Assembly: GCA_903813345.2 (NCBI GenBank)
Contig: CAIIXF020000002.1
Location: 34,304,109 to 34,368,108 of the forward strand
DNA: 64,000 bases
Source: Owenia fusiformis
Lineage: Eukaryota > Annelida > Polychaeta > Sabellida > Oweniidae
Reading direction: 5' to 3'
Part shown: positions 7,307 through 63,956 of the stretch, piece after piece
Layout of the letters: each line of letters opens with the position of its first letter
How positions within the stretch are numbered: position 1 is the first letter of the stretch
Notes under the pieces: generated by a model
The model's input: only the letters and a program-made list of their open reading frames with translations
The model's database searches: none
What the model was told of the DNA's origin: nothing
Made by a program: the position numbers and the translations under genes

Positions 7307-7566
7307 TCAAGAAAAATGACCTCGAGATTTTTTATGGAAACTAAGAGAGCCAGTATGGGCAAACCTCATAGGGCATAAATTGCATGCATATGGTTTGTTC
7401 CCTGTATGAGTGTTCATGTGTCTTTTCATGGTATACTTTGTAGTAAATATTTTAAGGCAAACTTCACACTGATGGTCCCTTGATTGCTGATAGGGATTTG
7501 TACTTGTTTCTATAGCAACACTTGAGTTTGTTGGTTCTTCCCACCTGGACAACTGGCTCCAATTAG
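7307..7566 (-). CDS. ZE1: alternative terminal exon, two zinc fingers (3'-most of the locus)
   Basis: The acceptor is GTATTTCCAG at 7567-7576. Two bases complete the split codon and 85 residues follow. A Ser/Thr/Asn-rich lead-in (1-30) precedes finger 1 (C33, C36, H49, H53). The linker is HTGNKPYA. Finger 2 is C61, C64, H77 and H83, with five residues between the histidines rather than the usual three or four. The stop follows two residues after the last His. An upstream open stretch reading through the acceptor is intron. It would be the most distal choice for splicing. The role is inferred as a DNA-binding tail of a nuclear transcription factor. Confidence 0.83.
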
Positions 7567-8339
7567 CTGGAAATACAAAAAAAGCTCTAGATTCATAAAC
7601 CATATGTCTGAAATGTATTGTATATTCGAACATGACTGTATTCACGCCTTCTATAAACTGTGAACAAAGTTAATATTTCACCTGGTATGTATTCGTCGAC
7701 ACTGCACCTGGTAATACGAGTAATGTGTGACGTGATAACGGCGGGCCATGATGAATAATCGAAAATGTTGGTAGTTTTCATGTTTGAATCGTAATATAGA
7801 CCCCATAGCAGGTGATATATCGACAAATGGATACCTTAGGGCAGGCACAAAAGCTTTTCGAACCCCACAGAAATCGTTGTGCGGTATGTATTCGTCAATA
7901 TAACACCTGGTCTTCTGTCTTTGTTTCTTAATTAAAGTAAAGTAATGTAACAACTTTATAAGAAAGCATTACAAATGAGTGATCTGATTTTGACCTACAA
8001 TATGAATCCATCAATTATCATTAAAAACATCATTACAAAATGTGCTATCAATCACAATGCCAACTATATCAAATACAATATGAACAATATCAAATACAAT
8101 GAACCATGTCAAATTCAATATCAACCATATCAAATACAATATGAACCATATCAAATACAATGAACCATATCAAATACAATAATATCAACCATTTAATTAC
8201 AGTGCAGTTGTAAACCACTTAAAAAGTGCTCAAAACAAAAATGAAAAAGTGCATTTCAAAAGAATTTATGGCATAGGTTGTTCGCTCTAACCCCGGGCTC
8301 TAACCACCCCTGCTCCCCTCTCTTCTGAGTGCAGGCAGA
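7567..8339. other. Intron-like spacer between ZE1 and ZE2
   Basis: No exon is visible. On the minus strand, GACGAATACATACC occurs twice, about 190 bp apart (near 7690 and 7893), each preceded by a CCAGGTG motif, which suggests a small duplicated or element-derived segment. The 21-bp repeat at 8065-8182 lies in this gap. Confidence 0.5.
8065..8182. repeat. Short tandem repeat, about 21-bp unit
   Basis: Five to six imperfect copies of ACCATATCAAATACAATATG. The apparent peptide NNIKYNEPCQIQYQPYQIQ is a product of the repeat and not a gene. Confidence 0.8.
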
Positions 8340-8659
8340 TTACATGTATGTGAGGTACCTTCCTATCGCATCGTTCCGGTGTTTCTTCTTGTGTCTACTC
8401 AATGAGCCATCATTTGAAAATGTTGCAGAACATATTGGACAAACATACGGCTTCTCGCCAGTGTGGATGAACATATGCCTCTTTAGGGCCTGGTTTGACC
8501 TGAACTGTTTCAAGCAAAGCTCACATTGTTTCATCTCTATGTGAATAGATGGAGCTAGCGATGCAGGAATCGAGGCTTGTTGTTGTTGGTTGCCAGGTGA
8601 TTTGGGACTCTGAGTATACAGATGCTGCTGTAACCATGGTAACTGAGTGTTCATCATTT
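8340..8659 (-). CDS. ZE2: alternative terminal exon, two zinc fingers
   Basis: The acceptor TATACTTTCAG ends at 8660. The exon opens with AA and then an in-frame ATG, so 105 residues follow the split codon; that Met need not be an initiator. The lead-in (1-43) is Gln/Pro/Ser-rich (GNQQQQASIPAS). Fingers are at 45-65 (CELC...HMFIH) and 73-93 (CPIC...HKKKH), joined by a standard HTGEKPYV linker. A 12-residue basic-to-neutral tail (RNDAIGRYLTYM) ends the frame. Helix residues SNQALKR and NDGSLSR differ from those of the neighbouring exons, implying a different DNA target. Confidence 0.88.
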
Positions 8660-9197
8660 CTGAAAGTATAATTCATTTTGGTTTAACAACAAATTAAATT
8701 TAAATAATTGTGATTTAGTTGGAATCAACTGTGAATTGTGAATGGATTCTGATTGACTGACACACTACATAATACACGTTGGCTAATAACAATTTGATAT
8801 TACTCAACTAAAAGTTGTGAAAACTCTGTTAGCTACAATGTAAAAGAAAATGACCCTTCCTATCCTCCCAATTAATTCAAATGAAATTAAGGTAATCGTA
8901 CAATGGTAGCATTCCCCTTAAGAATAATTATCACTGTTGTATAAAGAATTTTGTGTGCTTGTCGAGGGTAGCAAACTATCAGCTAGGTTAACAAAAAATA
9001 CCAATGCTGCAAAACAAATAGTACTATTTGAAAATATTTGAAAATATGGGATTAGAAGCAAGTCATATACAACAAATGCAGACGAACAGGGAAACAAACA
9101 CTATACATGTAGTGTTAAGTCAATAATTTATAATATTTGAAAGATTAAACCTAAATTATATTTATCGAATATTGTCGTGTCATCTTTTACATTTGAC

Positions 9198-9734
9198 CAT
9201 GGGCTTTCAACTAGAAGGGTAGGCAACTTCCCATATTTCATACATAAACATTGCCATGGGTTTTCAAAATTGGAGAATGTACACATTCCAAGAAAATCTT
9301 ATTTTGTACTTTTTATTGATGATTAAAACAAATAACTCAAAAATAAAAACATGATCTTCTACATACATCTTGATAATTTAATAAAAATTGGAATTCATCA
9401 TAATTATGACAATACAGAAAGTGAACATTCTCCCACAAATTATGTTTTTATTGGAATGTGTTCTTGAATAATTACCCACAATGCAATACTCAAAGAGAAC
9501 ATCTTGATAACTCTTATTCTTATTGCCGTCTCTTTTGTTTACTTTTATATGATATTGAATATATTCTATGCTTGAATCATATTAAAAATTGATTTTTATT
9601 CAAAATAATACTAAAACATACATTTATCTAGTACTTTTTGAAATATTGCCATAAAAGGGAAGCATGTCATTGCTCATTTTGAAGGTCTCATGTTATTGCA
9701 TAGAGTTGCATACCCTTCTAGTTGAAAGCCCATG
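9198..9734. mobile_element. 537-bp MITE with 7-bp target duplication
   Basis: The ends are inverted copies: CATGGGCTTTCAACTAGAAG on the left, and the same read from the right on the minus strand. They continue for about 30 bp with one mismatch (GGGTAGGCAAC against GGGTATGCAAC). The element is flanked by identical ATTTGAC at 9191-9197 and 9735-9741. It has no coding capacity. A 7-bp duplication does not fix the superfamily. Confidence 0.75.
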
Positions 9735-10691: not shown

Positions 10692-10752
10692 GATCTTTAT
10701 AAGCACTCGCCCGGAAAACGAGAGGTCATGGGTTCAATCCCCACTGGTATAC
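10692..10752 (+). other. tRNA-like fragment (probable SINE relic)
   Basis: An anticodon-arm-like CTCGCCCGGAAAACGAG is followed by a variable stretch and a good B box (GGTTCAATCCC at about 10733). No matching D arm or A box is visible upstream, so this is not a working tRNA gene. A tRNA-derived SINE remnant is most likely. Confidence 0.4.
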
Positions 10753-10868: not shown

Positions 10869-11116
10869 TTAAGCAATACACGAGTGGCACTTTTTTACAT
10901 GTCCACGTAGATTCGATTGTGCAGCGAAACTGGCTGGACAATACTGACAACTGAATGGCTTATTTCCAGTATGGATGTTTATATGAACGTTAAGATTGTC
11001 CCTTCGGGAGAATTTCTTTCGACACACTGGGCACTCAAATTTCTTTGCATATTCTGTTTTGCGCTTTATTCCTCTTTTGCTTTGTTGTCCCATTTTAAGC
11101 CATGGATGTAGGGTCT
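10869..11116 (-). CDS. ZE3: alternative terminal exon, two zinc fingers
   Basis: The acceptor TATATTTTTCAG ends at 11117. Eighty-one residues follow the split codon. The lead-in is short and strongly basic (KRGIKRKTEYAKK, about residues 13-25), which could act as a nuclear localisation signal. Finger 1 is at 28-48 (CPVCRKKFSRRDNLNVHINIH). Finger 2 (56-77) has C56, C59, H72 and H77 (HVKKCH). The linker is HTGNKPFS. Finger 2 shares the C-P-A-x-x-A-A-x-S-N-L pattern with ZE4, ZE5 and ZE6, marking one exon subfamily. Stop follows SCIA. Confidence 0.88.
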
Positions 11117-12529: not shown

Positions 12530-12816
12530 TTAAGGATGGTACTTTTTCATATGTCCAGTAAGATTAGAGGCAGCAGCAAAACACGCTGGACAGTGTTGAC
12601 ATTTAAATGGTTTGTTTCCAGTATGAATGTTAATGTGATAATTTAGATTTCCCCTCTGAGAGAATTTCTTCAAACACATTGGACACTCAAATTTCTTCTT
12701 GTGTAATATTGGTCTAAGTGGAGTTGAACTATGCTTGGGTCCAGTATCGATGTTGTGATATAAACTGGCACGTTCCCGTCGATGTGGTGGAGTTCCAGAC
12801 AATGGACGTTCAGTCC
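12530..12816 (-). CDS. ZE4: alternative terminal exon, two zinc fingers
   Basis: The acceptor TTATTGTTTCAG ends at 12817. There is no ATG ahead of the fingers, which fits an exon entered only by splicing. Ninety-four residues: a lead-in rich in Pro, Arg and His (1-40), finger 1 at 44-64 (CPMCLKKFSQRGNLNYHINIH), linker HTGNKPFK, and finger 2 at 72-93 (CQHCPACFAAASNLTGHMKKYH). The stop comes one residue after the final His. It is closest to ZE3 (shared NLN-HINIHTGNKPF core), and both are probably products of an old exon duplication. Confidence 0.88.
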
Positions 12817-15585: not shown

Positions 15586-15905
15586 TTAAATAAAACTTGG
15601 ACAGCATTTCTTCAGATGTCTTTTAAGATTAGACGCTGCGGCATATCTCGCTGGGCAACGTTGACATTTAAACGGCTTGTTCCCTGTGTGAATGTTATTA
15701 TGATAATTCAGATAGCTTTTCTGGGTGAATGTTTTTAGGCAAATTGGACACTGAAATCCTCCATTGCTTGACCTTGGCTGGTTGTGTCCATGTGGTTGCT
15801 GTGGTGACTGGAGAGTGGGTGCATTAGGGGGTGCTTGGAGAGAAGGTGCTATATACTGCTGTGGTGATTGTGTAGCCTCACTAGACAAAGACCAGGTTTG
15901 TGAAG
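15586..15905 (-). CDS. ZE5: alternative terminal exon, C2H2 finger plus a C2HC-type finger
   Basis: The acceptor TTTTGTTTCAG ends at 15906. 105 residues. The lead-in (1-48) is low complexity, rich in Pro, Gln and Ser (TQSPQQYIAP, LQSPQQPHGHNQP), and likely disordered. Finger 1 is at 52-72 ([21 protein letters not shown]). In finger 2, C80, C83 and H96 are followed by KKCC, so the fourth ligand must be Cys (C100 or C101) and not His. The linker is HTGNKPFK. The exon and about 1 kb or more of its upstream intron are duplicated as ZE6. No start codon is needed. Confidence 0.88.
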
Positions 15906-17813: not shown

Positions 17814-18127
17814 TTAAATAAAACTTGGACAGCATTTCTTCATGTGCCATTTGAGATTAGATGCTGCGGCATATCTTGCTGGGCAACATTTGCATTTAAA
17901 TGGCTTATTGCCTGTATGAATGTTATTATGATAATTCAGATAGCTCTTCTGGGTGAATGTTTTTAGGCAAATTGGACACTGAAATCCCCCTTTGCTTGAC
18001 CTTGGCTGGTTGTGTCCATGTGGTTGCTGTGGTGACTGGAGAGAGGGTGCATAAGGGGGTGCTTGGAGAGAGGGTGCTATATACTGCTGTTGTGATTGTT
18101 CAGCCCTACAAGACCCGATTTGTAAAC
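17814..18127 (-). CDS. ZE6: intact duplicate of ZE5 without a start codon
   Basis: I translated this from the acceptor (TTCTGTTTTAG, ending at 18128): 103 residues with no interruption and a stop at 17814-17816. The lead-in keeps the ZE5 pattern (QQQYIAPSLQAPPYAPSLQ, SPQQPHGHNQPRSS). Finger 1 (50-70) is identical to ZE5. Finger 2 (78-99) is CKCCPARYAAASNLKWHMKKCC, again with Cys as the last ligand. Differences such as QRC to KCC and KRHL to KWHM are substitutions that keep the frame, which argues for selection on a working exon. The acceptor has TAG where most neighbours have CAG. No ATG precedes the fingers. Confidence 0.85.
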
Positions 18128-19714: not shown

Positions 19715-19995
19715 TTAATGGTCCTTTTTCCTGTGTCTTGTAAGATTGCCAGGAGCATTATAAGCTTTCCCGCAAATATTACATTTATATGGCTTCTCGC
19801 CAGTATGGATGTTCATATGAATCAGCAATCCTGGCCTGGTGGCGAATGTTTTCAGACATAGCTGACATTGGACATCTTCTTCTGACGGTGTATCTTTCCT
19901 GTATGGACTCCTATAGTTGTCTCTGTGTGAAGGATTATAGCCAGGATTGGCAGCTGGTTGGAGGACGTACATTGCCTTGTTATATGGGTAAACAC
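19715..19995 (-). CDS. ZE7: alternative terminal exon, two zinc fingers
   Basis: The acceptor TCTTATTTCCAG ends at 19996. Ninety-two residues follow the split codon. The lead-in (1-41) is Tyr/Asn/Pro-rich ([30 protein letters not shown]) and turns acidic just before the fingers (SEED). Finger 1 is at 43-63 ([21 protein letters not shown]). The linker is HTGEKPYK. Finger 2 at 71-92 is [22 protein letters not shown]. The final His is the last residue, so the exon has no C-terminal extension. Confidence 0.88.
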
Positions 19996-21389: not shown

Positions 21390-21655
21390 TCACTGAAAAA
21401 AGCTATTGATGGGGTGGTATTTCCTCTTATGGTAAGACAGGTTGCTAGGGTGTTGAAACGCAGATCCACACTGGTGACATTTAAATGGCTTCTCTCCAGT
21501 ATGAATATTCATATGGTAAGTCAGATGCTGCGATGTTGTGAATGTCTTTAGGCAAATAGGACATCGAGGACGTATCTTCTCTTTTGATGTTGTCACCATT
21601 GCTGTTGCTGTTGCTATTGTTGTCTCTATGGTGATGGCAGGCTTCCATCTGGCAA
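21390..21655 (-). CDS. ZE8: alternative terminal exon, two zinc fingers
   Basis: The acceptor TTAATTTTCCAG ends at 21656. Eighty-seven residues. The lead-in is Thr/Ala-rich ([17 protein letters not shown]), encoded by a (GCAACA)n-like tract, then a basic EKIRPR. Fingers are at 31-51 ([21 protein letters not shown]) and 59-80 ([22 protein letters not shown]), with linker HTGEKPFK. The tail is PINSFFQ. A motif in its upstream intron (21825-21955) is repeated above ZE10 (25315-25425), linking the two as possible duplicates whose exons have since diverged. Confidence 0.87.
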
Positions 21656-22841: not shown

Positions 22842-23161
22842 TCATTTCGGAGAAGATGATTTTCTGTTTCTTGCTCCAATATATTCTTTGCCATGCACAT
22901 CAAGAACATGTCTTCGAAGATGCGTCATCCTCCGAAATAATTTACAGCATATGTGACATGCCAAGGATTTAGCTTCGTGAATCTTCATATGTTGATTCAG
23001 GTTACTCTTTGATGTGAACTGCCTGTTGCATACCACACATTTAGTTCTATTGTTGGAGTCTTGCTCAGGAGGCTCATTCAACTGATCAAGTGTTGCAAAT
23101 CTTGACACAGCATTATCCTGGTTGTATGGGTTCATTCTCAGGATAAAAGTGTTGCTCATTC
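22842..23161 (-). CDS. ZE9: alternative terminal exon, two zinc fingers with a non-canonical linker
   Basis: The acceptor TTCTTATTTCAG ends at 23162, and the exon begins GA then an in-frame ATG. 105 residues. The lead-in (1-38) is Asn/Glu/Asp-rich. Finger 1 is at 41-61 (CVVCNRQFTSKSNLNQHMKIH). The linker is EAKSLA, unlike the TGEKP/TGNKP type used almost everywhere else, so the two fingers may not lock on DNA in the standard way. Finger 2 is at 68-89 (CHICCKLFRRMTHLRRHVLDVH). A basic, Ser-rich tail of 16 residues follows (KEYIGARNRKSSSPK). It is the most divergent intact exon. Confidence 0.87.
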
Positions 23162-24655: not shown

Positions 24656-25026
24656 CTATGTATCATCTCCAAAGCCTGCAAATGGACTTTTCTCCCTGTG
24701 TACTCTCTCATCATGTGTCCTCCTATGTCTATGCATTGTACCACTCTGTCTGAACATCTTATGGCACAAATCACATTTAAATGGTTTTTCTCCAGTGTGG
24801 ATCATTAAGTGGGTCTTATACACATGTAAAAACTCAAAACTTTTCAGGCAGATTTTACAAATGAATTGTTTTTGGTTTTGGCTCTCCTTTGGAGGGACAG
24901 ACTGTTTCGAACTGTGTAAGACCCCTGGCTGTGGTAGATTATACAGAGACAGACTGTGCTGTAAAAGACTATGAGGAGCTTGTTTCATGGGTAGAGTAAG
25001 GCTTGGTAGACCCCTATATACAGGAT
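24656..25026 (-). CDS. ZE10: alternative terminal exon, two zinc fingers
   Basis: The acceptor TTCTAATTTCAG ends at 25027. 122 residues, with the longest lead-in of the two-finger exons (1-54; Leu/Pro/Ser/Gln-rich, ending ESQNQKQF). Finger 1 is at 56-76 (CKICLKSFEFLHVYKTHLMIH), the linker is HTGEKPFK and finger 2 is at 84-104 (CDLCHKMFRQSGTMHRHRRTH). The 18-residue tail is charged and then acidic (DERVHREKSPFAGFGDDT). Open frames on the opposite strand here are shadows of this exon. Confidence 0.88.
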
Positions 25027-27180: not shown

Positions 27181-27437
27181 CTAAATGATTTGAGGACACA
27201 TTTCACATTGGTATGGTTTCTCTCCCGTATGAATCCTCATGTGTTCTTTGATATAAACCTTCTGAGAAAATCTCTTTTCACATATATCACATTGAAAAGG
27301 TTTTTACCAGTGTGAATCATTTCATGTCTTTTACAATTCAGTAAGTCTCTCTCTTCAGTATGAATCCCCATATGTTTTTTGCAGTAGGTTTGATGATTAA
27401 ATGCCTTCTTACAGATGTCACAGGTGTATACCCTCAT
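27181..27437 (-). pseudogene. ZE11: broken zinc-finger exon
   Basis: One good finger is readable (CDICKKAFNHQTYCKKHMGIH). After it the CxxC half of a second finger is missing (HTEERDLLNCKRHEMIH). Then HTGKN replaces HTGEK because one base is absent relative to the family codons, shifting the frame. Past the shift the other frame carries a clear finger ([29 protein letters not shown]) and stops at 27181-27183. No acceptor of the array's type sits at the expected place; TATTAG at about 27497 and GATAG at about 27477 would give phase 1, but both are weak. It resembles the ZE12/ZE13 finger type. A sequencing error could explain the single-base loss but not the missing half finger. Confidence 0.75.
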
Positions 27438-28585
27438 GTCATATTTTAACTGTTTTGTGTACTGTAATTGCTGACTATCTATCTGTTTGTCTAATAATGG
27501 GATCTTGTTGACACATAAAGTGATAATAATAAAAATAATAATATTAGTCTTTTAATACATATCAATGGTGTAAATAAAATACTTAGGCAATGGATTTCCT
27601 CTCAGTTTCAACCTACAGGTTATGTATCAACAGTATATTATAAAATATTTAGAAAATGGATTTATTTGGATATGTATTGGATGGTTTAAGATATATATCA
27701 TCCTTAACATGGTAAAATGCCTAACATGAAGCATAAGAAAGAACAAGGCACAGGACTAACAGGACTAAATGGCCACCAGAAAACAAGATGGCCGCCCAAA
27801 AGTTAATCAGCTCTAGTACTTGATATCCTCTATCATTTGTGTAAATTTGAAGGAAATCCGATGAACGGTTTTCCTGAAATGGCGATGACAAGATTTTTCG
27901 AAAAACCTTCAAAATGGCCACCAGAAAACAAGATGGCCGCCCAAAAGTTAATCAGCTCTAGTACTTGATATCCTCTATCATTTGTGTAAATTTGAAAGAA
28001 ATCCGATGAGCGGTTTTCCTGAAATGGCGATGACAAGATTTTTCGAAAAACCTTCTAAATGGCCACCAGAAAACAAGATGGCCGCCCAAAAGTTAATCAG
28101 CTCTAGTACGTCATATGCTCTATCATCTCTGCGAATTTGGAGAAAATCTGATGAGCAGTTTTCCTTAAACGGCGATGACAAAAAGCGGGACGATCACCAC
28201 CACGATCACGACCACGACCACGACCAGTATGACGACTATATCCCACCGATGGTGTGATAAAAAGAGATTACATTATTGTATATTTTTTTTGTGCAATTGT
28301 TCAAATTTATCCTCTATCATGCTAGGATTTTACTTTAATTTTTAAAATTAATTTTGATATTTGCTTTTCAGAAACTGGTGAGCTGATCACTGATGCTAAT
28401 AAAATATAAAATATTACCATTAATAAACATAACAGCCCTGTAGCCAGCTTTTGCAAGAATGAATTCACTTTTCAAAATAATTCCAGAGGGGTTATATGGG
28501 CATTTGACAACTTTGGCCCGAAACAATTGTGAAGTGCTCAGAAACATAAAAACTGCATGATTTTGAAAGATGAAAGACTTTTTGA
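27438..28585. other. Spacer holding two element relics
   Basis: Apart from the 145-bp repeat (27765-28255) and an element relic (28434-28590), I see no gene or distinct feature. Open frames in the repeat are artefacts. Confidence 0.5.
27765..28255. repeat. Three-unit 145-bp tandem repeat ending in a GACCAC run
   Basis: ACAAGATGGCCGCCCAAAAG starts at about 27784, 27929 and 28074. Each unit also contains GTAAATTTGAAGGAAATCCG-like and GGCGATGACAAGATTTTTCG motifs. The block ends with a CACGACCACGACC microsatellite and TATATCCCACCGATGGTG. The layout (tandem units with ATGGCCGCC, then a simple-sequence end, then CTATATCCC) parallels the families at 13 and 57-59 kb. Confidence 0.8.
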
Positions 28586-28590
28586 ATTTT
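28434..28590. mobile_element. Decayed relative of the CAGGCC...GTAGCCAGG element
   Basis: CCCTGTAGCCAG, TTCCAGAGGGGTTA, CATTTGACAACTTTGGCCCG, GAAGTGCTCAGAAAC and AACTGCATGATTTTGAAAGA follow in the same order as on the minus strand of the element at 44812-45022. One end has decayed. Confidence 0.6.
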
Positions 28591-29665
28591 AACATCATTA
28601 ACTAATCACTATCGCATGTTCAAAGAGCATGTATTTTAATATCATCAACTAGTCACTTTGACATGTTCAAAATGCATGAATTTTAACAATATCAATTTAT
28701 CACTTTCTCACATTCAAAGGGCATAAATTTTAACATCAGCAACCAATCACTTTGACATGTTCCAAGGGCATGTATTTTAACATCATCAACTAATCACTTT
28801 GACATGGTCAAATGGCATGAATTTTAAAATGGTCATCATTTTCAAAGACCATGAATGAATTAACATCATCAACTCATCACTTTGACATGTTCAGAAGGCA
28901 TTCATTTCAACACAATCAATTAGTCACTTTGACATGCTCAAATGGCATTTATTTTAACATCATTAACGAATCACTTTGACATGTTCAAAAGGCATGAGTT
29001 TTAACATCATCAACTAAACACTTTGACATGTTCAAAAAGAATGAATTTTAACATTATCAAATAGCCACTTTGAAATGTTAAAATGACTTGAATATAACAT
29101 CATCAACTAATCACTTTCAAATGTTCAAATGGCATGCACTTTAACATTTACAACTTATCACTTTGCCATGTTCAAAGAGCATGTATTTTAACATCAGTAA
29201 CTAGTCACTTTGACATGTTCAAATGGCATGAGTTTTAACATCATCAACTAGTCACTTTGACATGTTCAAAAAGAATGAACTTTAACATTATCAAATAGCC
29301 ACTTTGAAATGTTATAATGACTTGAATATAACATCATCAACTTGTCACTCTGATATGTTCAAAAGGACATGAATTTTAATACCATAGACTAAACATTTTG
29401 TCATGTTCAAAAGGCATGAATATAACATCATCAATTTATCACTTTGACATCCTCAAAAGGCATGAATTTAACATCATCAACAAATCACTTTGTTATGTTC
29501 AAAGTGCATAAATAATCAACTTATCACTTTAACATGTTCAAAGGGAATAAATCTTAACATCATCAACTAATCACTTTGACACATTCAAATGTCATAAATT
29601 TTAACATCATCAACTAATCACTTTGATATGTTCAAAGGGTATGAATTTTAGCACCATCAACAAGA
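28586..29665. repeat. 47-bp minisatellite, left array
   Basis: About 23 diverged copies of the unit CATCATCAACTAATCACTTT plus GACATGTTCAAAGGGCATGAATTTTAA. It ends 160 bp below the fossil fingers that trail ZE12. The same unit resumes at 30895 on the far side of ZE12, and a short piece lies at about 34070-34160. Confidence 0.9.
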
Positions 29666-30042: not shown

Positions 30043-30743
30043 TTAAGGTTTCTCCCGAGTGTGGATCAGCTTGTGTTGTTTCAGATGAACCTTCCGAGAA
30101 CATTTTTTACCACATATATCACACTGGAAATGTTTTTCACCAGTGTGAATCATGTTATGTTTTTTTAATGTACGGAGTTCTCTAAATTCTTTTAAACATA
30201 TTTCACATTTATGAGGTTTTTCACCAGTGTGAATCATTTTATGTTTTTTTAATGTACGGAGATATCTAAATTCTTTCACACATATTTCACATTTAAAGGG
30301 TTTCTCCCCAGTGTGGATCAGCTTGTGTTGTTTCAGATAAACCTTCCGAGAATATTTTTTACCACATATATCACACTGAAAAGGTTTTTCACCAGTGTGA
30401 ATCATTTCATGTTGTTTTAATGTACTGAGTTCTCTAAATTCTTTTAAACATATTTCACATTTATAAGGTTTCTCTCCAGTATGTGTCCTCATGTGTGTTT
30501 TGAGATGAAACTTCCGAGAAAATTTTTTCTCACAAATCCCACACTGAAAAGGTTTCTCACCAGTGTGGATCATTTTATGTTGTTTTAAATTACTAAGATG
30601 TCTAAATTCTGTTAAACATATTTCACATTTATAAGGCTTCACTCCAGTATGAGTCCTTATATGGTTTTTGTTATGGTCCCCCTTATTCATATATTTGTAG
30701 CACACTTTTCTTGATAATTGTTCTGGCATGAGCTCGCACAAAT
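30043..30743 (-). CDS. ZE12: alternative terminal exon, seven intact fingers (largest in the window)
   Basis: The acceptor TTTATTTCCAG ends at 30744. 232 residues. Like ZE13 it opens CELMPEQ-(L/V)-SRK. The first finger (about 14-31, CYKYMNKGDHNKNHIRTH) has lost the CxxC pair that ZE13 keeps (CGICYKSM). Seven canonical fingers follow with a strict 28-residue period starting near residue 39, alternating CEICLKEFR and C(D/G)IC(G/E)KK types, which points to expansion by duplication of finger pairs. The frame ends at HTREKP with a TAA where the next Tyr codon would be, and readable finger sequence continues beyond it. The exon sits in an island between two 47-bp satellite arrays. Confidence 0.9.
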
Positions 30744-30894: not shown

Positions 30895-33303
30895 TACATC
30901 ATCAAGTGATCTCTTCGTCATGTAAAATGATATGTACTTTGACATCATCAACTTAACTCTTTGACATGTTCAAAAGGCATGAACTTAAAAATTATAAACT
31001 AATCACTTTGAAATTTATGTTCAATAAAAAACATGGGTTTGAACATCATCAACTTTGACATGAGTTTAACAGCATTAACTAATCACTTTGACATGTTCAA
31101 AGGGCATGAATTTTAACATCATCAACTGATAACTTTGACACGTTCAATGGGCATGAATTTTTCCACTAATCACTCTGACATGTTCAAAAGCAATAAATTG
31201 TAAAGCATCAACTAATCACTTTGTCATTGTTCAAATCCCATGAGTTTTACAGTATTAACTAATCACTTTAAACATGTTCAAATGGCATGAATTTTTGACA
31301 TCAAGAACTGGTCATTCACACATTCAAGGGGCGAGCATTTTAACATCATCAAATAATCACTTTGACATATTCAAAAGGCATGAATTTCAACATTATCATC
31401 TTATTACTTTCACACATTCAAAGGGCAAGAATTTTTACATCATCAACTAATCACTTTGACATGTTCAAAGGGCATGACTTTCAGCACCATCAATTTAACA
31501 CTTTGACATGTTCAATGAGGATGAAATTTAACATCATCAACCAATCACTTTGACATGTTCAAAGGGCATGAATTTTAACATCATCAACTAATCACTTTCA
31601 CATGTTCAAAGGGCATGAATTTTAACATCATTAACCAATCACTTTGACATGTTAAAAGGGCATGAATTTTAACATCATCAACCAATCACTTTGATATGTT
31701 CAATGGGCATGAATTTTAGAATCATGAACTAATCACTTTGTCATTGTTCAAATGGCATGAATTTTAACATCATCGACTTATCATTTAACTAGTTCAAAGG
31801 GCATGACTTTTAGCACCATCAATTTAACACTTTGACATGTTCAATGAGCATGAAATTTAACATCATCAACCAATCAGTTTGATATGTTCAAAGGGCATGA
31901 ATTTTAACATCATCAACTTATCACTTCCACACATTCAAAGGGCATGAATTTTTCCACAAATCACTCTGACATGTTCAAAAGCAATAAATTGTAAAGCATC
32001 AACTAATCACTTTGTCATTGTTCAAATGCCATGAGTTTTACAGTATCAACTAATCACTTTCACATGTTCAAATGGCATGAATTTCAACATCATTAACTAA
32101 TTTACTTCCACACATTCAAAGGGCATGCATTTTATTATCATGAATTAATCACTCACACATTCAAAGGGCACGTTCCTAGAGCTTGAATTTTAACATCATC
32201 AACTAATCACTTTCACACGTTCAATGGGCATGAATTTCTACACCATCAACTTATTACTTTGACATGTTCAAAGGGCATGAATGGTAGCACCATCAACTAA
32301 TCACTTTGCAACATTCAAAGGGCATGAATTTTTACATCATCAACTAATCACTTTAACATGTTCAAATGGCATGACTTTTAGCACCATCAACTAATCCCTT
32401 TGACATGTTCAATGGGCATGAATTTTAGAATCATCAACTGATCATTTTGTCATTGTTCAAATGCCATGAGTTTTACAGCATCAACTACTAGCATCACTTC
32501 AACATGTTCAATGGGCATGAATTTCAATTTGTTAACTGATCACTTTGACATGTTCAAAAGGCATTTATTTTAACATCAGCAATTAATCTGTTTCGTTCAA
32601 ATTGCATGACTTTTAACAACATCAACTTATCATTTTGACAAGTTCAATGGGCATGAATTTTAACATCATTAACTTATCACTTCCACACATTCAAAGGGCA
32701 TGAATTTTTCAACTAATCACTTTCACATGTTCAAAGGGCATGAATTTTAACATCATCAACCAATCACTTTGACATGTTCATTGGGCATGAATTTCAACAT
32801 CAACTAATCACTTTTTCAATGGGCATGAATTTCAATATAATTAACTTATAACTGATAACTTTGACATGTTCAAACAGCCTTAATTTCAACATCTGCAACT
32901 AATCTCTTTCACAAGTTCAAAGGGCATGAATTTTAGCACCATCAACTAATCACTTTGACATGTTCAATGGGCATGAATTTTAACATCATCAACTAATCAC
33001 TTTGACATGTCCAATGGGCATGAATTTTAACATCATCAACTAATCACTTTGACATGTTCAATGGGCATGAATTTTAACATCATCAACTAATCACTTTGAC
33101 ATGTTCAAACAGCCTTAATTTCAACATCTGCAACTAATCTCTTTCACAAGTTCAAAGGGCATGAATTTTAGCACCATCAACTAATCACTTTGACATGTTC
33201 AATGGGCATGAATTTTAGCACCATCAACTAATCACTTTGACATGTTCAATGGGCATGAATTTTAACATCATCAACTAATCACTTTGACATGTTCAATGGC
33301 TTG
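30895..33303. repeat. 47-bp minisatellite, right array (2.4 kb)
   Basis: About 50 copies of the same 47-bp unit as the array at 28.6-29.7 kb. Copies between about 32880 and 33303 are nearly identical to each other (GGGCATGAATTTTAACATCA, CAACTAATCACTTTGACATG), so this end was homogenised most recently. Confidence 0.92.
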
Positions 33304-34268: not shown

Positions 34269-34564
34269 TTAATGTATCAACAGGTGTCTTTCAAGATTAA
34301 ACTTCCGAGAAAATCTTTTGTCACATATACTACACTGAAAGGGTCTTTCACCAGTATGAATCATTGTATGTCTATTAAAATCAGACGATCCTTTAAATTC
34401 TTTCAAGCACAATTCACATTTATAAGGCTTCTCTCCAGTATGTGTCCTCATGTGGCATTTGTAGTGAACGCTCTGATTCATGGATTTGTAGCATATTCCA
34501 CATGTGAACTTAGCTTTGGAATTGGATTTTCGTGATACTTGTTCTGGCATAAGCTCACACTGAT
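34269..34564 (-). CDS. ZE13: alternative terminal exon, three zinc fingers
   Basis: The acceptor TTTATTTTTAG ends at 34565. Ninety-seven residues. QCELMPEQVSRKSNSKAKFT leads directly into finger 1 (21-41, CGICYKSMNQSVHYKCHMRTH), finger 2 (49-69, CELCLKEFKGSSDFNRHTMIH) and finger 3 (77-97, CSICDKRFSRKFNLERHLLIH), with TGEKP/TGERP linkers. The final His is the last residue. It is sister to ZE12 by the lead-in, but with three fingers, and is probably closer to the ancestral form. A poly(A) signal follows the stop. Confidence 0.9.
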
Positions 34565-37909: not shown

Positions 37910-38142
37910 TTATCTTGTTATATTCATATGTTTCTTCTTAATATGTTTCTTCAGATCTGCATTTTGTCGATACGATTTCAAACACAAATTACATTTAAAT
38001 GGTTTTTCTCCAGTATGGCTCCTCATGTGATATTCATAATGTGTCTTGTCATTCAACAATTTCTTACAAATATGACAAGAATATTCAAATCTGGGTTTTC
38101 TCAGGTTTCTTCCCTCAGTTACTTGTATAGTGTATCCATAAT
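37910..38142 (-). CDS. ZE14: alternative terminal exon, two zinc fingers
   Basis: The acceptor TTTGTATTTACAG ends at 38143. Seventy-six residues. A short lead-in (YGYTIQVTEGRNLRKPRFEY) precedes finger 1 (22-42, CHICKKLLNDKTHYEYHMRSH), the linker HTGEKPFK and finger 2 (50-71, CNLCLKSYRQNADLKKHIKKKH). The tail is MNITR. The open frame continues upstream through the acceptor into the intron, but that part (leucine- and valine-rich) is not finger-like. A decayed finger lies right behind the stop. Poly(A) signal candidate: minus-strand AATAAA at 37669-37674. Confidence 0.87.
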
Positions 38143-38732: not shown

Positions 38733-39115
38733 TCATGGAATCATTTTTTGTGTTTTTGCTTCTTTTTTCTTTACAGTTAATGACATTAGCCATGTGACTG
38801 AATTTAACTCTCTTAAACACAATTCACAATTGAATGGGTTTCCTTTTGATTGGCAGTTATATGATTTTATTACCTTTCCTTTCATTACTCTTTTAATTTT
38901 TTTTCCTTGTTTGTGTCCATGAACTTCTCTCTGATGTCTATTCAAATCAGATATTTGTCTGAAGTCTTTCAGACAAAGTTTACATTGAAATGGTCTTTCT
39001 CCAGTATGCATCCTCATGTGATAACCTCTGTTAACTATAGATTTTTTGCAGATTGGACATTCATATTTGACTTTGGATTTTTGAGGTTTCATTGAGTTGA
39101 TGTGGTGCCTGTGAT
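38733..39115 (-). CDS. ZE15: alternative terminal exon, one intact finger with two damaged ones
   Basis: The acceptor TATATTTTTAG ends at 39116. 126 residues. Finger 1 (19-36, CPICKKSIVNRGYHMRMH) is three residues shorter between the Cys and His pairs than its sister in ZE16, so it may not fold. Finger 2 (44-65, CKLCLKDFRQISDLNRHQREVH) is intact. A 25-residue lysine-rich stretch follows (GHKQGKKIKRVMKGKVIK), then a third unit that keeps CELC but has no His pair (CELCLRELNSVTWLMSLTVKKK). The frame is open, but the exon looks to be losing function. Its lead-in HRHHINSMKPQKSK matches that of ZE16. Confidence 0.8.
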
Positions 39116-40521: not shown

Positions 40522-40739
40522 TTAGTGAGTGAGTCTATGTATATCTCTCTGATGCCTATTCAAATTGCTGACATTTCTGAACCCTTTCAAACACAGTTGA
40601 CATTTATATGGTTTTTCTCCAGTATGGGTCCTCATGTGATAACTGTAATGGCCCTTGTTAACCATGGGTTTCTTGCAGATTGGACACACATATCTGGCTT
40701 TCAATTTTTCAGGTTTCTTTGATTTGATGTTACTGTGAT
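40522..40739 (-). CDS. ZE16: alternative terminal exon, two zinc fingers
   Basis: The acceptor TATATTTTTAG ends at 40740. Seventy-one residues, one of the two smallest open exons. The lead-in HSNIKSKKPEKLKARYV is lysine-rich. Finger 1 is at 18-38 (CPICKKPMVNKGHYSYHMRTH), the linker is HTGEKPYK, and finger 2 is at 46-67 (CQLCLKGFRNVSNLNRHQRDIH). The tail is RLTH. It is the intact sister of ZE15 and of the relic at 37.8 kb, so three descendants of one exon lie within 3 kb in different states of decay. Seventy-nine bases above its acceptor begins the 3.6-kb element at 40818. Confidence 0.88.
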
Positions 40740-45509: not shown

Positions 45510-45814
45510 CTATACACCAGTATGGATCTTCTTCATATGAGTTATTAGGTGATTCTTCTGGTGAAATCTTTTATCACATTCTCTACATTCAAATGGTTTC
45601 TCTCCAGTATGGATCATTAAGTGTTGTTTTAATGTGCACTTAGCTCTGAACCTCTTCAAACAAAGCTCACATTCAAATGGCTTCTCGCCAGTATGGGTCC
45701 TCAAGTGATAGTTAAAATTACCAACATTGTTCAGTGTCTTATTGCATGTTGGGCACACATATTTAGGATAAGGTTTTGAAGTAGTTTGGTTTACCATAGT
45801 GGGGTCTCGGAGTC
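45510..45814 (-). CDS. ZE17: alternative terminal exon, three zinc fingers
   Basis: The acceptor TATATATTTCCAG ends at 45815. One hundred residues. The lead-in (LRDPTMVNQTTSKPYPKY) runs to finger 1 (20-40, CPTCNKTLNNVGNFNYHLRTH), finger 2 (48-68, CELCLKRFRAKCTLKQHLMIH) and finger 3 (76-97, CRECDKRFHQKNHLITHMKKIH), with TGEKPFE linkers. It stops after TGV, as if a further linker had been cut short. An open frame extends upstream across the acceptor into a MITE (45882-46127). That part is not finger-coding and I exclude it. Confidence 0.88.
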
Positions 45815-47258: not shown

Positions 47259-47674
47259 TTATGTTTGGTGAAATGTGGATACATGCTTTGTCTTCATATG
47301 TGCTAAAAGTTTAGATTTTGCATGAAATCCCATCTGACAAATTCTGCAGTAGAATGGTTTGATGCCAGTATGTGTCATTTTATGTCGATTATAATCAGTC
47401 AATCCACGAAACTCTTTCAAACATAGTTCACATTGATATGGCTTCTCTCCGGTATGAATCCTCATATGGTAACTAAAATTGCTCTTGTTTTTGGATCTTT
47501 TGTGACATATTTTACAAACTAAATGATCATTGTATTTTAAGTTATCGGGCTTCTCGCTAGTATGTATCCTCATATGGACATCATAGAGCTCCCTCTGGTG
47601 GAGATTCTGGTGACATATTGGGCAAATATACTGATTCCCATACAAAGTTGTCGATAGGTAGCCACTTGGGTGCT
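47259..47674 (-). CDS. ZE18: alternative terminal exon, four zinc fingers
   Basis: The acceptor TGTTTATTTTCAG ends at 47675. 137 residues. Fingers are at 17-37 (CPICHQNLHQRELYDVHMRIH), 53-73 (CKICHKRSKNKSNFSYHMRIH), 81-101 (CELCLKEFRGLTDYNRHKMTH) and 109-130 (CRICQMGFHAKSKLLAHMKTKH). Fingers 1 and 2 are separated by 15 residues (TSEKPDNLKYNDHLV) and not the usual seven, splitting the array into 1+3. The tail is VSTFHQT. ZE19 is a partly degraded sister. A second, near-identical acceptor lies 113 bp upstream. Confidence 0.88.
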
Positions 47675-48847: not shown

Positions 48848-49236
48848 TCAAGCATTGTGAACCTTCATGTGTGTCAGAAGTTTGGATCTTGAATGGAATG
48901 CCTCTTCACAAACCTCACACTGAAATGCTTTTTCACCAGTATGGATCATTTTATGTCGCTTAAAGTTAGCTAATCCTCTAAATTCTTTCAAACACATTTC
49001 ACACTGATATGGCTTCTCTCTGGTGTGGATTCTCATGTGGTAATTAAAATTGTTCTTGTTTTTGGATATTTTGTTGCATATTTTACAAATTAAACCATCC
49101 TTGGATTTGATATAATTAGAGTTTTCTCCAGTATGTGTGCTTGTATCATATTGGCCACTATAGTCTGGGTTCTCCTCGCATGTTGGATACACGTATAGAC
49201 CTCGGTTTCCTGCTGATGAGGCGCCACTTATATGTC
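48848..49236 (-). CDS. ZE19: alternative terminal exon, three intact fingers plus one degenerate
   Basis: The acceptor TTCTGTTTTCAG ends at 49237. 128 residues. The region matching finger 1 of ZE18 is now YVYPTCEENPDYSGQYDTSTH, with the first Cys and one His lost, so it cannot bind zinc normally. Intact fingers are at 50-70 (CKICNKISKNKNNFNYHMRIH), 78-98 (CEMCLKEFRGLANFKRHKMIH) and 106-126 (CEVCEEAFHSRSKLLTHMKVH). The second linker is TREKPYQ. ZE18 and ZE19 share the long spacing before the CKIC finger, confirming a duplication. Confidence 0.87.
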
Positions 49237-49820: not shown

Positions 49821-50131
49821 TCAGTTTGTATCCAGTTTTTCCCTGTGTGTCTTCAAATGTTTAAGACAGTAATATTTTCTTGAGAATCTCTTTCCACATA
49901 TGTCACATGCAAATGGCCTTTCTCCAGTATGTGTCTTTTTATGAGCATTCATAAGTCCAATGGATCTAAAGCTCCTTAGGCATAAATCACATCGGAAAGG
50001 TTTCTCGCCAGTATGGATCATCACGTGGTATTCCATATTACTCTTACTTAGCAAGGTTTTCTTGCAAGTTTTGCATTTATAATGCAAATTTTTCATTCCA
50101 CCTTTCGTCATGTCACCATAGGTTTGGTAGC
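49821..50131 (-). CDS. ZE20: alternative terminal exon, three zinc fingers
   Basis: The acceptor ATCTTTGTTTGCAG ends at 50132. 102 residues. The lead-in YQTYGDMTKGGMKNLHYK is followed by finger 1 (19-39, CKTCKKTLLSKSNMEYHVMIH), finger 2 (47-67, CDLCLRSFRSIGLMNAHKKTH) and finger 3 (75-95, CDICGKRFSRKYYCLKHLKTH). Linkers are TGEKPFR and TGERPFA, and the tail is REKLDTN. All zinc ligands are present. It is one of the cleanest canonical exons. Confidence 0.9.
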
Positions 50132-53571: not shown

Positions 53572-53861
53572 TCATTGATGTTTAGCTTTTATATGTAATT
53601 TAAGGTGCTGGTTCAGGGAGTATCGCTTTCCACATAAAGTACAAATAAAAGGCTTTTCTCCAGTATGGGTCCTAGTATGACGGTTCAGTTGACTGACTGA
53701 TCTAAAATCTTTAAGACACAGTTCACATATGTATGGCTTCTCTCCTGTATGGGTCATCATATGATATTTGAAATCTCCTTTAGAATGTAGTACTTTCTCA
53801 CAAATTGTACACACATAGTGCCTGGTTTTGTTTAATCTATTGTAGCTACTGTGAATGTGAA
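53572..53861 (-). CDS. ZE21: alternative terminal exon, three zinc fingers
   Basis: The acceptor CTTTATTTCCAG ends at 53862. Ninety-five residues. No ATG precedes the fingers. The lead-in HIHSSYNRLNKTRHYV goes straight into finger 1 (17-37, CTICEKVLHSKGDFKYHMMTH), finger 2 (45-65, CELCLKDFRSVSQLNRHTRTH) and finger 3 (73-94, CTLCGKRYSLNQHLKLHIKAKH), with TGEKPYI and TGEKPFI linkers. Stop follows one residue after the last His. The first finger resembles that of ZE22 and ZE25 (KVL, FKYHM), making these three a subfamily. Confidence 0.9.
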
Positions 53862-54814: not shown

Positions 54815-55032
54815 CTACATCCATAATGCTCTCACATGGCTCTTAGAATGCCTGTTTAAATGTCCAGATGATCTAAATGACTTCCAACACAGATCACATT
54901 TGTATGGTTTCTCGCCAGTATGTGTCCTCATGTGATATTTCAAGTGACTATTGTCATATAACACTTTATCACAAACTGTACACTTTATTACTTTCTTTGG
55001 TTTGTTAAATGTATTGATGCCATGGTTTGAAC
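54815..55032 (-). CDS. ZE22: intact two-finger exon without a start codon
   Basis: I translated this from the acceptor (CTATATTTTCAG, ending at 55033): 71 residues, stop at 54815-54817. The lead-in SNHGINTFNKPKKVIK is nearly that of ZE25 (SKHSIKTINKPKKVIQ). Finger 1 is at 17-37 (CTVCDKVLYDNSHLKYHMRTH), the linker is HTGEKPYK, and finger 2 is at 45-65 (CDLCWKSFRSSGHLNRHSKSH), followed by VRALWM. The first in-frame Met lies inside finger 1, so a start-based search would miss the exon. Its sister ZE25 has a third finger. Here the third was lost when a tandem duplication brought in an early stop. Confidence 0.82.
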
Positions 55033-56422: not shown

Positions 56423-56426
56423 TATA

Positions 56427-56734
56427 TCACTCCAAATATTGATGTTTCATCTTCATATGATTTATAAGGGCACCTTTAGATGCAAATTGTTTTTCACATA
56501 GATTACACTTATAAGGTTTTTCTCCAGTATGGGTCCTATTGTGACGATTCAACTGTCCAACAGTAATAAACTTTTTCAAACACAATTGACACTGATATTG
56601 TTTTTCTCCAGTATGTGTCTTCATGTGGTAATTATAATGAGCCTTTTGGGTTATGATCTTATCACATACTGGACACCTGTACATAGATTCCCCGCCAAAA
56701 CCTTTGTGGCTCTTCTGTGCAGTGAGTTGACCCC
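56427..56734 (-). CDS. ZE23: alternative terminal exon, three zinc fingers
   Basis: The acceptor TTTTTTATTTCAG ends at 56735. 101 residues. The lead-in GQLTAQKSHKGFGGESMYR runs to finger 1 (20-40, CPVCDKIITQKAHYNYHMKTH), finger 2 (48-68, CQLCLKKFITVGQLNRHNRTH) and finger 3 (76-97, CNLCEKQFASKGALINHMKMKH). The first linker is TGEKQYQ, with Gln in place of Pro. The tail is QYLE. ZE24 is a close copy. The two share the TGEKQYQ linker and an identical second finger, so they may bind overlapping DNA sites and differ mainly in fingers 1 and 3. Confidence 0.9.
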
Positions 56735-60565: not shown

Positions 60566-60861
60566 TTAATGTTTCATCTTCTGATGTTTAATAAGGGCAG
60601 CTTTAGATGCAAATTGTTTTTCACAGAGAGTACACTTAAAAGGCCTTTCTCCAGTATGGGTCCTATTGTGACGATTCAACTGTCCGACAGTAATAAATTT
60701 TTTCAAACACAATTGACACTGATATTGTTTTTCTCCAGTATGTGTCTTCATGTGGTAATCATAATGAGCCTTATGGGTTGTTAGCTTAGCGCATACTGGA
60801 CACTTGTAAATAGATCCCCTGCCAAAACCTTTGTGGCTCTTCTGTGTAGTGAGTTGACCCC
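60566..60861 (-). CDS. ZE24: alternative terminal exon, three zinc fingers, copy of ZE23
   Basis: The acceptor TTTTATTTTCCAG ends at 60862. Ninety-seven residues from the acceptor; an internal Met in finger 1 must not be taken as the start. The lead-in GQLTTQKSHKGFGRGSIYK precedes finger 1 (20-40, CPVCAKLTTHKAHYDYHMKTH), finger 2 (48-68, identical to ZE23) and finger 3 (76-97, CTLCEKQFASKAALIKHQKMKH). The last His is the final residue, so the four-residue tail of ZE23 is missing. Substitutions keep every zinc ligand. Confidence 0.9.
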
Positions 60862-62310: not shown

Positions 62311-62597
62311 TCAGTGCATCTTTTTTATATGTAATCTCAATTCATTTGGTTGACTGTAAGACTTTTCACAAAGTTTACATTTATAAGGTTTCTCGCCAGT
62401 ATGGACTCTTCGATGACGTTTCAACAAATGAGTCGTGACAAATCTTTTTAAACATAAATCACATTTATGTGGCTTCTCGCCAGTATGTGTCTTCATGTGG
62501 TATTTGAGATGACTATAGTCATATAACACTTTTCCACAAACAGTACACTGAATTACTTTCTTTGGTTTGTTAATTGTCTTGATGGAATGCTTTGAAC
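62311..62597 (-). CDS. ZE25: alternative terminal exon, three zinc fingers
   Basis: The acceptor CTATTCTTTCAG ends at 62598. Ninety-four residues. The lead-in SKHSIKTINKPKKVIQ precedes finger 1 (17-37, CTVCGKVLYDYSHLKYHMKTH), finger 2 (45-65, CDLCLKRFVTTHLLKRHRRVH) and finger 3 (73-94, CKLCEKSYSQPNELRLHIKKMH). The final His is the last residue. Its front half pairs with ZE22 and its back half with ZE26 ([27 protein letters not shown]), so it looks like a mosaic of two neighbours, or the form from which both were copied. Confidence 0.9.
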
Positions 62598-63576
62598 CTG
62601 AAAGAATAGAACAAAGAAACAATTAACCAACAGATAGAAAAACACATGTAAAAAATACACTGCTGAAAGAATAAAAACAATTTTTCTTTATAATTAGAGT
62701 CAGTATGAGATGACCAAACATGAATCTATTTTTTGAATATATCTTCTTGATCCATCATTTATTTGTGCTTTCCATTTAGATTTTATGAAGTAGTTGTTTT
62801 TATGTTAAAATAACAAATTGATTTTGTTTTGCAATATTTCGATTTTATTCTTTAATCTTTTTCAAGCAACTGAAAATTGTTGCTATAATTATGACATCAT
62901 AGACTAAATTATGACATCATAGACTAAATTTTCAGTTGCTTGAAAAAGATTTAAAGAATAAATCGAAATATTGCAAAACAAAATCAATTTGTTAGATTTT
63001 ATGAAATACATGAACAGTTCTAAAGTCTGAAGTTAATACATTTTTGAGGATTGGTAATTCAAACACAAAGCTAATCTACAAAACAGATGAATAGGGCACC
63101 AGTTAGAAACTGATAATTTATAATATGTTTATTGTTCATCATTTATTTATCATTCAATAAACTACCTCTCAAATAGTTTAATTCTGATAAAAGAGAGCTT
63201 TAAGTACATATTCAGTTTAAGGCGCTGTACCCCTAAGTATCATGAAACTGAACTGGTTGATAATTCTTTTAGATTAAATATTTGTGTGCAATGAATAATG
63301 ACAAATTTTAAGACTCACATTAAAAGATATCATTGAAAGTACAACAGAGATCCACCAAAAATAGTATGAAATATTTGTACAATATTGGTAAACACACCAG
63401 AAATTAACATCATATTATTCAAAGTGTTTTACATAGTTTAGTTAATTTGCCATTTTGTTTTCGTCAGCTCCTACGTCATTTGACCTCAGCAATATATTGT
63501 GATTCAGTACATCTACATGTATTTCAAAGTTTTAAAAAGTTCACATTTATATGGATTTTGTACAATACCTTTTAAT
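62598..63576. other. Intron-like spacer between ZE25 and ZE26
   Basis: It holds the hairpin element at 62812-62993 and, at about 63390-63480, a decayed fragment of the element found at 57.9-59.0 kb (CACACCAGAAATTAACATCA, TCCTACGTCATTTGAC). No exon. Confidence 0.55.
62812..62993. mobile_element. Near-perfect 66-bp hairpin with a 50-bp loop (foldback MITE)
   Basis: The arms AACAAATTGATTTTGTTTTG through AAGCAACTGAAAAT are reverse complements with only one or two indels. The loop contains ATTATGACATCATAGACTAA twice in direct order. TTAGATTTTATGAA occurs both at 62777 and 62992, near but not exactly at the two ends. The almost unaltered arms mean it is young or recently corrected. Confidence 0.75.
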
Positions 63577-63956
63577 TCAATGCATCTTTTTTATATGCAA
63601 TCTCAAGTCATGCTGATTTCTGTAAGACTTTTCACAAAGTTCACATTTATATGGTTTTTCTCCAGTATGGACTCTTTGATGACGTTTCAACATGTAAGTC
63701 GTTATAAATTCTTTTAAACATAATTCACATTTAAAAGGTTTCTCGCCAGTATGTGTCATTATATGGTAATTTAGGTTTCCTACTTGGAGAAATGTTTTTG
63801 GACAAAGGTGACACTTAAATGGTCGTGAAGTACTAGGCCTATGTGTTCCCATGTGGAGTTTTAGCCGCGATTGACAACTGAGCTGTTTTTGGCAAATTCC
63901 ACACTTATATTTATCATGATCAACTGTGCAGCTGATTCCAGTATATATGGAATAAC
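63577..63956 (-). CDS. ZE26: alternative terminal exon, four zinc fingers (5'-most in the window)
   Basis: The acceptor TTGTCTACTTCCAG ends at 63957. 125 residues follow the split codon. The lead-in is YSIYTGISCTVDHDKYK. Fingers are at 18-38 (CGICQKQLSCQSRLKLHMGTH), 48-68 (CHLCPKTFLQVGNLNYHIMTH), 76-96 (CELCLKEFITTYMLKRHQRVH) and 104-125 (CELCEKSYRNQHDLRLHIKKMH). The first linker is long and proline/serine-rich (RPSTSRPFK), separating finger 1 from a tight block of three. Fingers 3-4 are close to fingers 2-3 of ZE25. The open frame continues a little above the acceptor, but only as intron. As the first exon of the array to be transcribed, it would be the default terminal exon if splicing followed order of synthesis. 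Confidence 0.9.

What the first reader, a model, noticed from the sequence alone, without database searches (positions are those of the whole stretch)
7307..63956. A lola-like array of 25 interchangeable zinc-finger terminal exons
All 25 open exons are on the minus strand, each follows an AG acceptor, each starts with exactly two bases of a split codon, and each ends in its own stop after two to eight fingers. I checked the phase at every exon by hand and found no exception. Chance or unrelated single genes would not give one phase and one strand 25 times. The only simple reading is one constant upstream part joined to one of many DNA-binding tails, as in Drosophila lola. I know of no described locus of this size outside insects, but cannot search for one. 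The recognition-helix residues differ from exon to exon, so the locus could encode a family of transcription factors with one shared partner domain.
Basis: partly seen in the sequence, partly recalled or inferred. Interest (0 to 1): 0.95.

Follow-up and report, generated by a model that had tools for sequence, protein, structure and literature searches.

The report
Annelid zinc-finger gene with swappable tails
In the marine worm Owenia fusiformis, one gene appears to carry about 42 interchangeable DNA-binding end pieces that could each be spliced onto the same front part, as in the fruit-fly gene lola but with an unrelated front part, and similar genes recur along the same chromosome.

Summary
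The window comes from Owenia fusiformis (annelid), contig C2. It carries 25 open minus-strand zinc-finger exons; by a generic acceptor score the best acceptor gives a two-base split codon in 23 of 27 finger ORFs. The array runs on outside the window to 85.4 kb: 46 finger ORFs, 42 intact tails. About 8 kb upstream of it lies the constant part: two exons whose last donor leaves one base, G, so every junction codon is G+NN, never a stop. The public annotation joins this constant part to one tail at exactly that junction (P0001). The constant part is not BTB: it begins with a ~55-residue helix-plus-hairpin domain without a Pfam or PDB sequence match. A paralogous gene with 11-12 tails lies head to head with it. 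The domain occurs at 45 loci on C2, and finger linkers there lie downstream on the same strand (37 of 47; flipped 0 of 47). At two sister loci annotated isoforms join one constant part to 2 and 3 tails. For the other 41 tails here I found no junction to the constant part. It works like lola but is not a lola gene.

The parts
7307..7566 (-). tail exon, 2 fingers; last tail of the array
   Evidence: no further canonical finger ORF in 60 kb beyond the window
8340..8554 (-). tail exon, 2 fingers, acceptor uncertain
   Evidence: weak acceptors only
10869..11116 (-). tail exon, 2 fingers
12530..12816 (-). tail exon, 2 fingers
15586..15905 (-). tail exon, 2 fingers, close duplicate of the next
17814..18127 (-). 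tail exon, 2 fingers
19715..19995 (-). tail exon, 2 fingers
21390..21655 (-). tail exon, 2 fingers (acceptor chosen by hand over the script's)
22842..23161 (-). tail exon, 2 fingers
24656..25026 (-). tail exon, 2 fingers
27181..27551 (-). decayed tail exon (fingers in two different frames)
30043..30743 (-). tail exon, 7 canonical fingers; another lies behind its stop
34269..34564 (-). tail exon, 3 fingers
37910..38142 (-). tail exon, 2 fingers
38733..39115 (-). tail exon, 1 canonical finger plus imperfect ones
40522..40739 (-). tail exon, 2 fingers
45510..45814 (-). tail exon, 3 fingers
47259..47674 (-). tail exon, 4 fingers
48848..49236 (-). tail exon, 3 fingers
49821..50131 (-). tail exon, 3 fingers
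53572..53861 (-). tail exon, 3 fingers
54815..55032 (-). tail exon, 2 fingers
56427..56734 (-). tail exon, 3 fingers, close duplicate of the next
60566..60861 (-). tail exon, 3 fingers
62311..62597 (-). tail exon, 3 fingers
63577..63956 (-). tail exon, 4 fingers. The array goes on beyond the window end (17 more intact tails and two fragments at 65722-85312, constant exons of gene A at 93016-93342 and 93711-94239, all minus; gene B plus: constant exons 100517-100982 and 101124-101441, two-exon finger modules about 105747-114792, tails 116736-147883)
   Evidence: beyond the window

Best explanation
The window is the larger part of the alternative 3' end of one transcription-factor gene (gene A) of Owenia fusiformis. 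Two constant exons about 29 kb upstream of the window encode an N-terminal helix-plus-hairpin domain and an acidic linker. Their last donor leaves one base (G). Each of about 42 downstream exons on the same strand offers an acceptor followed by two bases, a linker, usually 2-4 C2H2 fingers and a stop. The spliceosome joins the constant part to one tail per mRNA, most likely in cis on one long transcript with alternative 3' ends, giving a set of proteins that share the N-terminal domain and linker and differ in DNA-binding specificity. Shown: the anatomy, the matching phases, one annotated junction here, several at sister loci, dN below dS between related tails. Inferred: that most tails are used, that joining is in cis, that the shared domain mediates protein contacts, that the linker is a SUMO-type repression module, and that tails bind different DNA.
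For: Two-base phase in 42 of 46 array ORFs, 23 of 27 in the window. Constant exons upstream on the same strand, donor TCAG|GTGAGA leaving one base. Of the 28 domain loci then held, nine (A, B and seven sisters) gave a recognisable exon 2, and in nine of nine a donor leaves one G (for L039 the script took an earlier AGGT than the likely CAAG|GTGAGA seen, which is also one-base). P0001, an annotated Owenia protein, is constant part A joined to the tail at 80735 with the predicted split codon. Annotated isoforms of the sister constant at C2:9703959(+) have tails about 2.4 and 7.7 kb downstream, and of that at C2:19798218(-) about 5.7, 24.6 and 38.2 kb downstream, all on its strand. Along C2, finger linkers have a same-strand constant domain 5' of them within 100 kb in 53 of 67 of a truncated list (flipped strand 1, random mean 4.8) and in 37 of 47 of a second, narrower pattern whose list covers all of C2 (flipped 0, random mean 3.4). 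dN is below dS in 14 of 14 chosen tail pairs. The two constant domains of A and B are the only matches in the region, the next lying about 263 kb away, so the tails have no private copies.
Against: Of 9 tail linkers searched (8 of array A, 1 of B), one was found in an annotated protein of 233-742 aa, and that model (P0043, partial) joins two tails to each other, not to the constant part. AATAAA is not enriched behind the tails (24 in 300 bases downstream against 24 upstream, 44 tails), so private poly(A) sites are not shown. The annotation mixes RNA-seq with ab initio prediction (passage of PMC9977687), so a model is not a read. The match for P0019's tail at 19759667 is imperfect (64% identity, three stops inside), partly because the query was a concatenation. 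Fourteen of 67 and ten of 47 linkers on C2 have no constant domain where the model wants one. One of the 14 tail pairs, with a fragment, is close to neutral (dN 0.07, dS 0.09).
Confidence: 0.85

Rival explanations
1. mod(mdg4)-like trans-splicing: the tails are transcribed from their own promoters and joined to the constant part between separate transcripts.
For: The distance from donor to last acceptor is about 85 kb, and lola itself uses both cis- and trans-splicing (PMC1947980 passages). The anatomy of donor and acceptors would be the same.
Against: At mod(mdg4) tails lie on both strands (figure legend of PMC12692577); here the tails of each gene are on the strand of its constant part, and the same holds along C2 (37 of 47 against 0 flipped). 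Same-strand placement is expected for cis and not needed for trans; tandem duplication alone would also keep strand.
Confidence: 0.1
2. A cluster of ordinary separate zinc-finger genes, each finger exon having its own private first exon and start.
For: Most tails have no annotated junction to the constant part that I found.
Against: One phase in 42 of 46; no further copy of the constant domain among the tails; an annotated junction to a shared constant part; several tails per constant part at two sister loci. I did not search for private first exons of other kinds.
Confidence: 0.03
3. Mostly relics: only the few tails near the constant part are used, the rest of the array is decaying duplicates.
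For: The annotated junctions at this locus involve tails at 75-81 kb, the near end. One window exon is broken and fragments exist.
Against: 25 of 27 window ORFs are readable, acceptors are kept, and dN is below dS in all 14 pairs tested, eight of which lie within the window.
Confidence: 0.15

Closest known systems
Drosophila longitudinals lacking (lola)
   Same: A common N-terminal part joined to one of many C-terminal finger exons; at least 20 isoforms by cis- and trans-splicing (PMC1947980, passages).
   Different: lola has a BTB domain of the TTK type, reported only from arthropods (PMC11426971, passages); here the common part has an unrelated small domain, about 42 tails, and a head-to-head twin gene.
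Drosophila mod(mdg4)
   Same: Common exons joined to one of more than 30 alternative 3' exons (PMC12692577, passages).
   Different: All mod(mdg4) mRNAs are trans-spliced and its tails lie on both strands; FLYWCH tails (recalled). Here C2H2 tails, one strand per gene.
Cephalopod 'zinc finger protein 236-like' (Argonauta hians, P0039) and unnamed relatives P0036, P0038, P0040-P0042
   Same: Same N-terminal domain followed by zinc fingers (E 5.7e-4 for P0039; sequences).
   Different: Weak sequence match; whether those genes have alternative tails was not testable here. The unnamed ones come from sources 'lgn' and 'ena' without a species.
KRAB and ZAD zinc-finger families
   Same: Lineage-specific expansions of a fixed N-terminal domain with varying fingers (recalled).
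   Different: No KRAB or ZAD match in the constant part; there each gene has its own domain exon (recalled), here many tails share one.

Membership tests
lola / TTK-type BTB-ZF genes | BTB domain in the common exons | tested here: not met
   Pfam scan of constant part A plus a tail has nothing but finger families above the cut-offs; 146 BTB matches in the genome (150 of 196 candidates scored), the nearest on C2 about 3.95 Mb away
lola / TTK-type BTB-ZF genes | Many alternative C-terminal finger exons downstream of one common part, one phase | tested here: met
lola / TTK-type BTB-ZF genes | Transcripts joining the common part to many tails | tested here: inconclusive
   One annotated junction at this locus, five tails at two sister loci, 1 of 9 linkers found in a further search and not joined to the constant part
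mod(mdg4)-type trans-spliced locus | Tails on both strands with own promoters | tested here: not met
   Strand only: array A tails minus, B tails plus; promoters not tested
mod(mdg4)-type trans-spliced locus | Joining in trans | not testable with these tools
   No RNA reads held
KRAB-ZNF / ZAD-ZNF | KRAB or ZAD domain | tested here: not met
   Searches (constant part A; 29 domain copies): no such match; only sub-threshold hits, best DUF1930 at E 0.039
Known fold for the constant domain | Match to a solved structure | tested here: inconclusive

The most novel reading that the evidence does not exclude
One chromosome-scale contig of an early-branching annelid (position recalled) carries a family of about 45 lola-like loci built on a previously undescribed lophotrochozoan helix-hairpin domain, often as head-to-head pairs with arrays of finger tails running away on both sides. 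Together they would make hundreds of interchangeable transcription factors from some tens of promoters. The design arose independently of the arthropod BTB genes, and a BTB version of the same layout may exist on contig C8 of the same genome.
Probability: 0.6. Interest if true: 0.87.

Novelty: new variant of a known kind. Interest (0 to 1): 0.78.

Why it matters
Combining one shared partner domain with many DNA-binding tails by splicing is known from a few insect genes such as lola and mod(mdg4). Here the same logic appears in an annelid with an unrelated domain, in larger arrays and at many loci of one chromosome. That would make it a convergent way of expanding a transcription-factor repertoire without new promoters. 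It also names a domain (helix plus hairpin) that no Pfam model reaches above its cut-off, found also in a cephalopod protein, whose role can be tested, and it warns that counts of zinc-finger genes in such genomes may miss most products.

Tried and rejected
A BTB constant part was the first guess; it was rejected. A cluster of single genes was set aside on phase and on the absence of further constant domains. Poly(A) signals were tried as support and gave nothing. 'Recognition residues differ' was checked: the 44 readable tails have 44 distinct contact codes, and 106 fingers have 86 distinct quartets, but entropy at contact positions is not higher than at other variable positions. Over the 14 pairs contact positions differ in 47 of 125 and other non-fixed finger positions in 101 of 315 (Fisher P 0.31, overlapping pairs), so I do not claim positive selection. 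Fold searches gave no convincing match; Rfam found nothing in the window at gathering thresholds. Eight literature searches listed no title or abstract start describing such an array in an annelid or the Owenia family; I saw listings only, and only open-licence PMC papers are covered. Of papers I saw passages only (PMC11292947, PMC9977687, PMC11426971, PMC12692577, PMC1947980). In PMC9977687 the words 'zinc finger' do not occur in the main text.
Full report
1. The observation. The canonical C2H2 fingers of the window lie on the minus strand. I scored all AG sites upstream of the first finger of each ORF by a generic acceptor matrix without regard to phase. The best one leaves two bases in 23 of 27 ORFs in the window and 42 of 46 in the whole array. 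The exceptions are one exon with no good acceptor (8343), one where my penalty for a nearby AG moved the choice (21393), the decayed exon (27240) and a leftover finger behind a stop (29959).

2. The surroundings. The window is C2:34304109-34368108 of a 498-Mb genome in 525 contigs. I fetched 60 kb below and 140 kb above. The minus-strand array continues to 85445 (window coordinates) and no canonical finger ORF follows below 7307; a plus-strand array lies at 116714-147883, with further plus-strand finger exons at about 105747-114792. Of 46 array-A ORFs, 44 read through without an internal stop from the chosen acceptor (two acceptors, 8554 and 21655, set by hand). Two of these are fragments (83371, 85012), which leaves 42 intact tails, 25 of them in the window. 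Array B has 11 readable tails, or 12 if the one at 118283 uses its second-best acceptor.

3. The constant part. Between the arrays two pairs of exons stand back to back. Gene A (minus): exon 1 from ATG 94239 to 93711, exon 2 93342-93016. Gene B (plus): exon 1 from ATG 100517 to 100982, exon 2 101124-101441. In both, exon 1 ends after one base of a codon, exon 2 keeps phase (length a multiple of three), and its donor TCAG|GTGAGA leaves the base G. Tails supply two bases. The junction codon is therefore always G+NN, which cannot be a stop. Because exon 1 ends in the same phase, exon 1 could also join tails directly (inference). Of 28 domain loci held, nine (A, B and seven sisters) showed a recognisable exon 2; in nine of nine a donor leaves one G.

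4. Species and annotated junctions. The constant part of A matches at 100% a public protein of Owenia fusiformis, P0001. P0001 continues after ADQSS with AQQYEYYG, the start of the tail at 80735: the predicted junction to the letter. P0005 is the start of gene B. Other annotated proteins on the same contig show one constant part with different tails: P0015 and P0017; P0008/P0021, P0019 and P0020. One search places these tails about 2.4 and 7.7 kb, and 5.7, 24.6 and 38.2 kb, downstream of their constant domains (C2:9703959 plus, C2:19798218 minus), each on the same strand; the farthest match is imperfect. The annotation combined RNA-seq junctions with ab initio models (PMC9977687, passages), so this is support, not proof. 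Against it: of nine tail linkers searched, only one turned up in an annotated protein of suitable length, in a partial model that fuses two tails, and the search by the constant part returned a single protein with constant part A.

5. Selection and origin. In 14 chosen pairs of related tails dN is below dS in each; several dS values are saturated and one pair with a fragment is near neutral. 38 of 55 tails have their closest relative within two ranks (no shuffled control was run). The array thus seems to have grown by local duplication, with its fingers kept under purifying selection. The 44 readable tails have 44 distinct contact-residue codes, but there is no clear excess of change at contact positions (47 of 125 against 101 of 315).

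6. The domain. The first 55-60 residues are the best conserved part of the family. AlphaFold2 gives one helix (3-23) and a hairpin (29-38, 47-56), pLDDT 88. Pfam, PDB sequences and PDB folds give no match above threshold. Relatives outside Owenia exist: an Argonauta hians zinc-finger protein (P0039, E 5.7e-4) and unnamed proteins P0036, P0038, P0040-P0042. P0035 joins the domain to a homeodomain. In 23 of the 43 fetched proteins, which I picked to leave out near-duplicates and proteins not of interest, the linker keeps a stretch of the form [EDS][EDP]xI[TLYV][ILV][ED] in 17 of 23, mostly close to a psi-K-x-E motif (no chance control). I read this as a possible SUMO acceptor with a SUMO-interacting stretch, hence repression; that is inference from recalled motif knowledge.

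7. Chromosome-wide pattern. The domain has 56 matches in the genome at E up to 1, 47 of them on C2, forming 45 loci there. Eight neighbouring pairs lie within 15 kb and all eight are head to head (random placement gives 0.8 close pairs; 0 of 20,000 trials reached eight). A finger-linker pattern has 644 matches genome-wide (control 0). Of the 67 C2 matches in its list, cut at 19.75 Mb, 53 have a same-strand constant domain upstream within 100 kb, against 1 with strands flipped and a random mean of 4.8. With a narrower pattern (128 matches, 100 listed, all of C2 covered) it is 37 of 47 against 0 and 3.4. Fourteen and ten matches have no such partner: two lie 144-178 kb from one, the others cluster at 5.12-5.14, 7.19, 21.94 and 22.07-22.10 Mb. 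The pattern also rings on other contigs, where the new domain is not near (0 of 29 on C8, 0 of 24 elsewhere).

8. Reading. The simplest account is one gene A with about 42 alternative terminal exons and a twin gene B. It works like lola (at least 20 isoforms, PMC1947980) and like mod(mdg4) (over 30, PMC12692577), but fails the lola membership test on the BTB domain. Same-strand placement favours cis-splicing over trans-splicing.

Noticed in passing
G000 C8:12138517-12138864(-), 12146041-12146379(+), finger linkers 12065039-12119169(-) and 12168451(+): A head-to-head pair of BTB exons with same-strand finger linkers on either side, i.e. perhaps the same layout with a BTB domain. On C8, 15 of 29 listed linkers have a same-strand BTB upstream within 100 kb, flipped 1, random mean 1.0. 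One exon read (L057): four fingers, the last C2HC, and a stop; acceptor and donor phases not seen.
   Followed up: partly
constant exon 2 of A (93016-93342) and B (101124-101441): The last part of the two exons has 167 identical and 2 different bases plus a 15-base gap, the first part 104 identical, 38 different and 8 gapped: recent gene conversion, or constraint on the DNA or RNA before the donor.
   Followed up: partly
window coordinates 133332-134687 (outside the window, L015 and L016): Eleven tandem copies of a ~123-base unit that carries the last finger of the 132973 tail with its stop: a minisatellite made of a finger.
   Followed up: no
window coordinates 105747-114792 (outside the window): Two-exon finger modules in gene B: an EKxPEDVK exon with a one-base donor (GTAAGTT) and a GK terminal exon, both with two-base acceptors.
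   Followed up: partly
window coordinates 94896-95294 (outside the window): Plus-strand ORF resembling the C-terminal part of a LINE-type reverse transcriptase, between the two divergent genes (family recalled, not searched).
   Followed up: no
P0035: Owenia protein with the same N-terminal domain followed by a homeodomain (PF00046): the domain is not tied to zinc fingers.
   Followed up: no
window 34819-37555, 31065-33307, 28583-29661: Large minisatellites between tails (49-base unit x 56; 47-base unit in two arrays).
   Followed up: no
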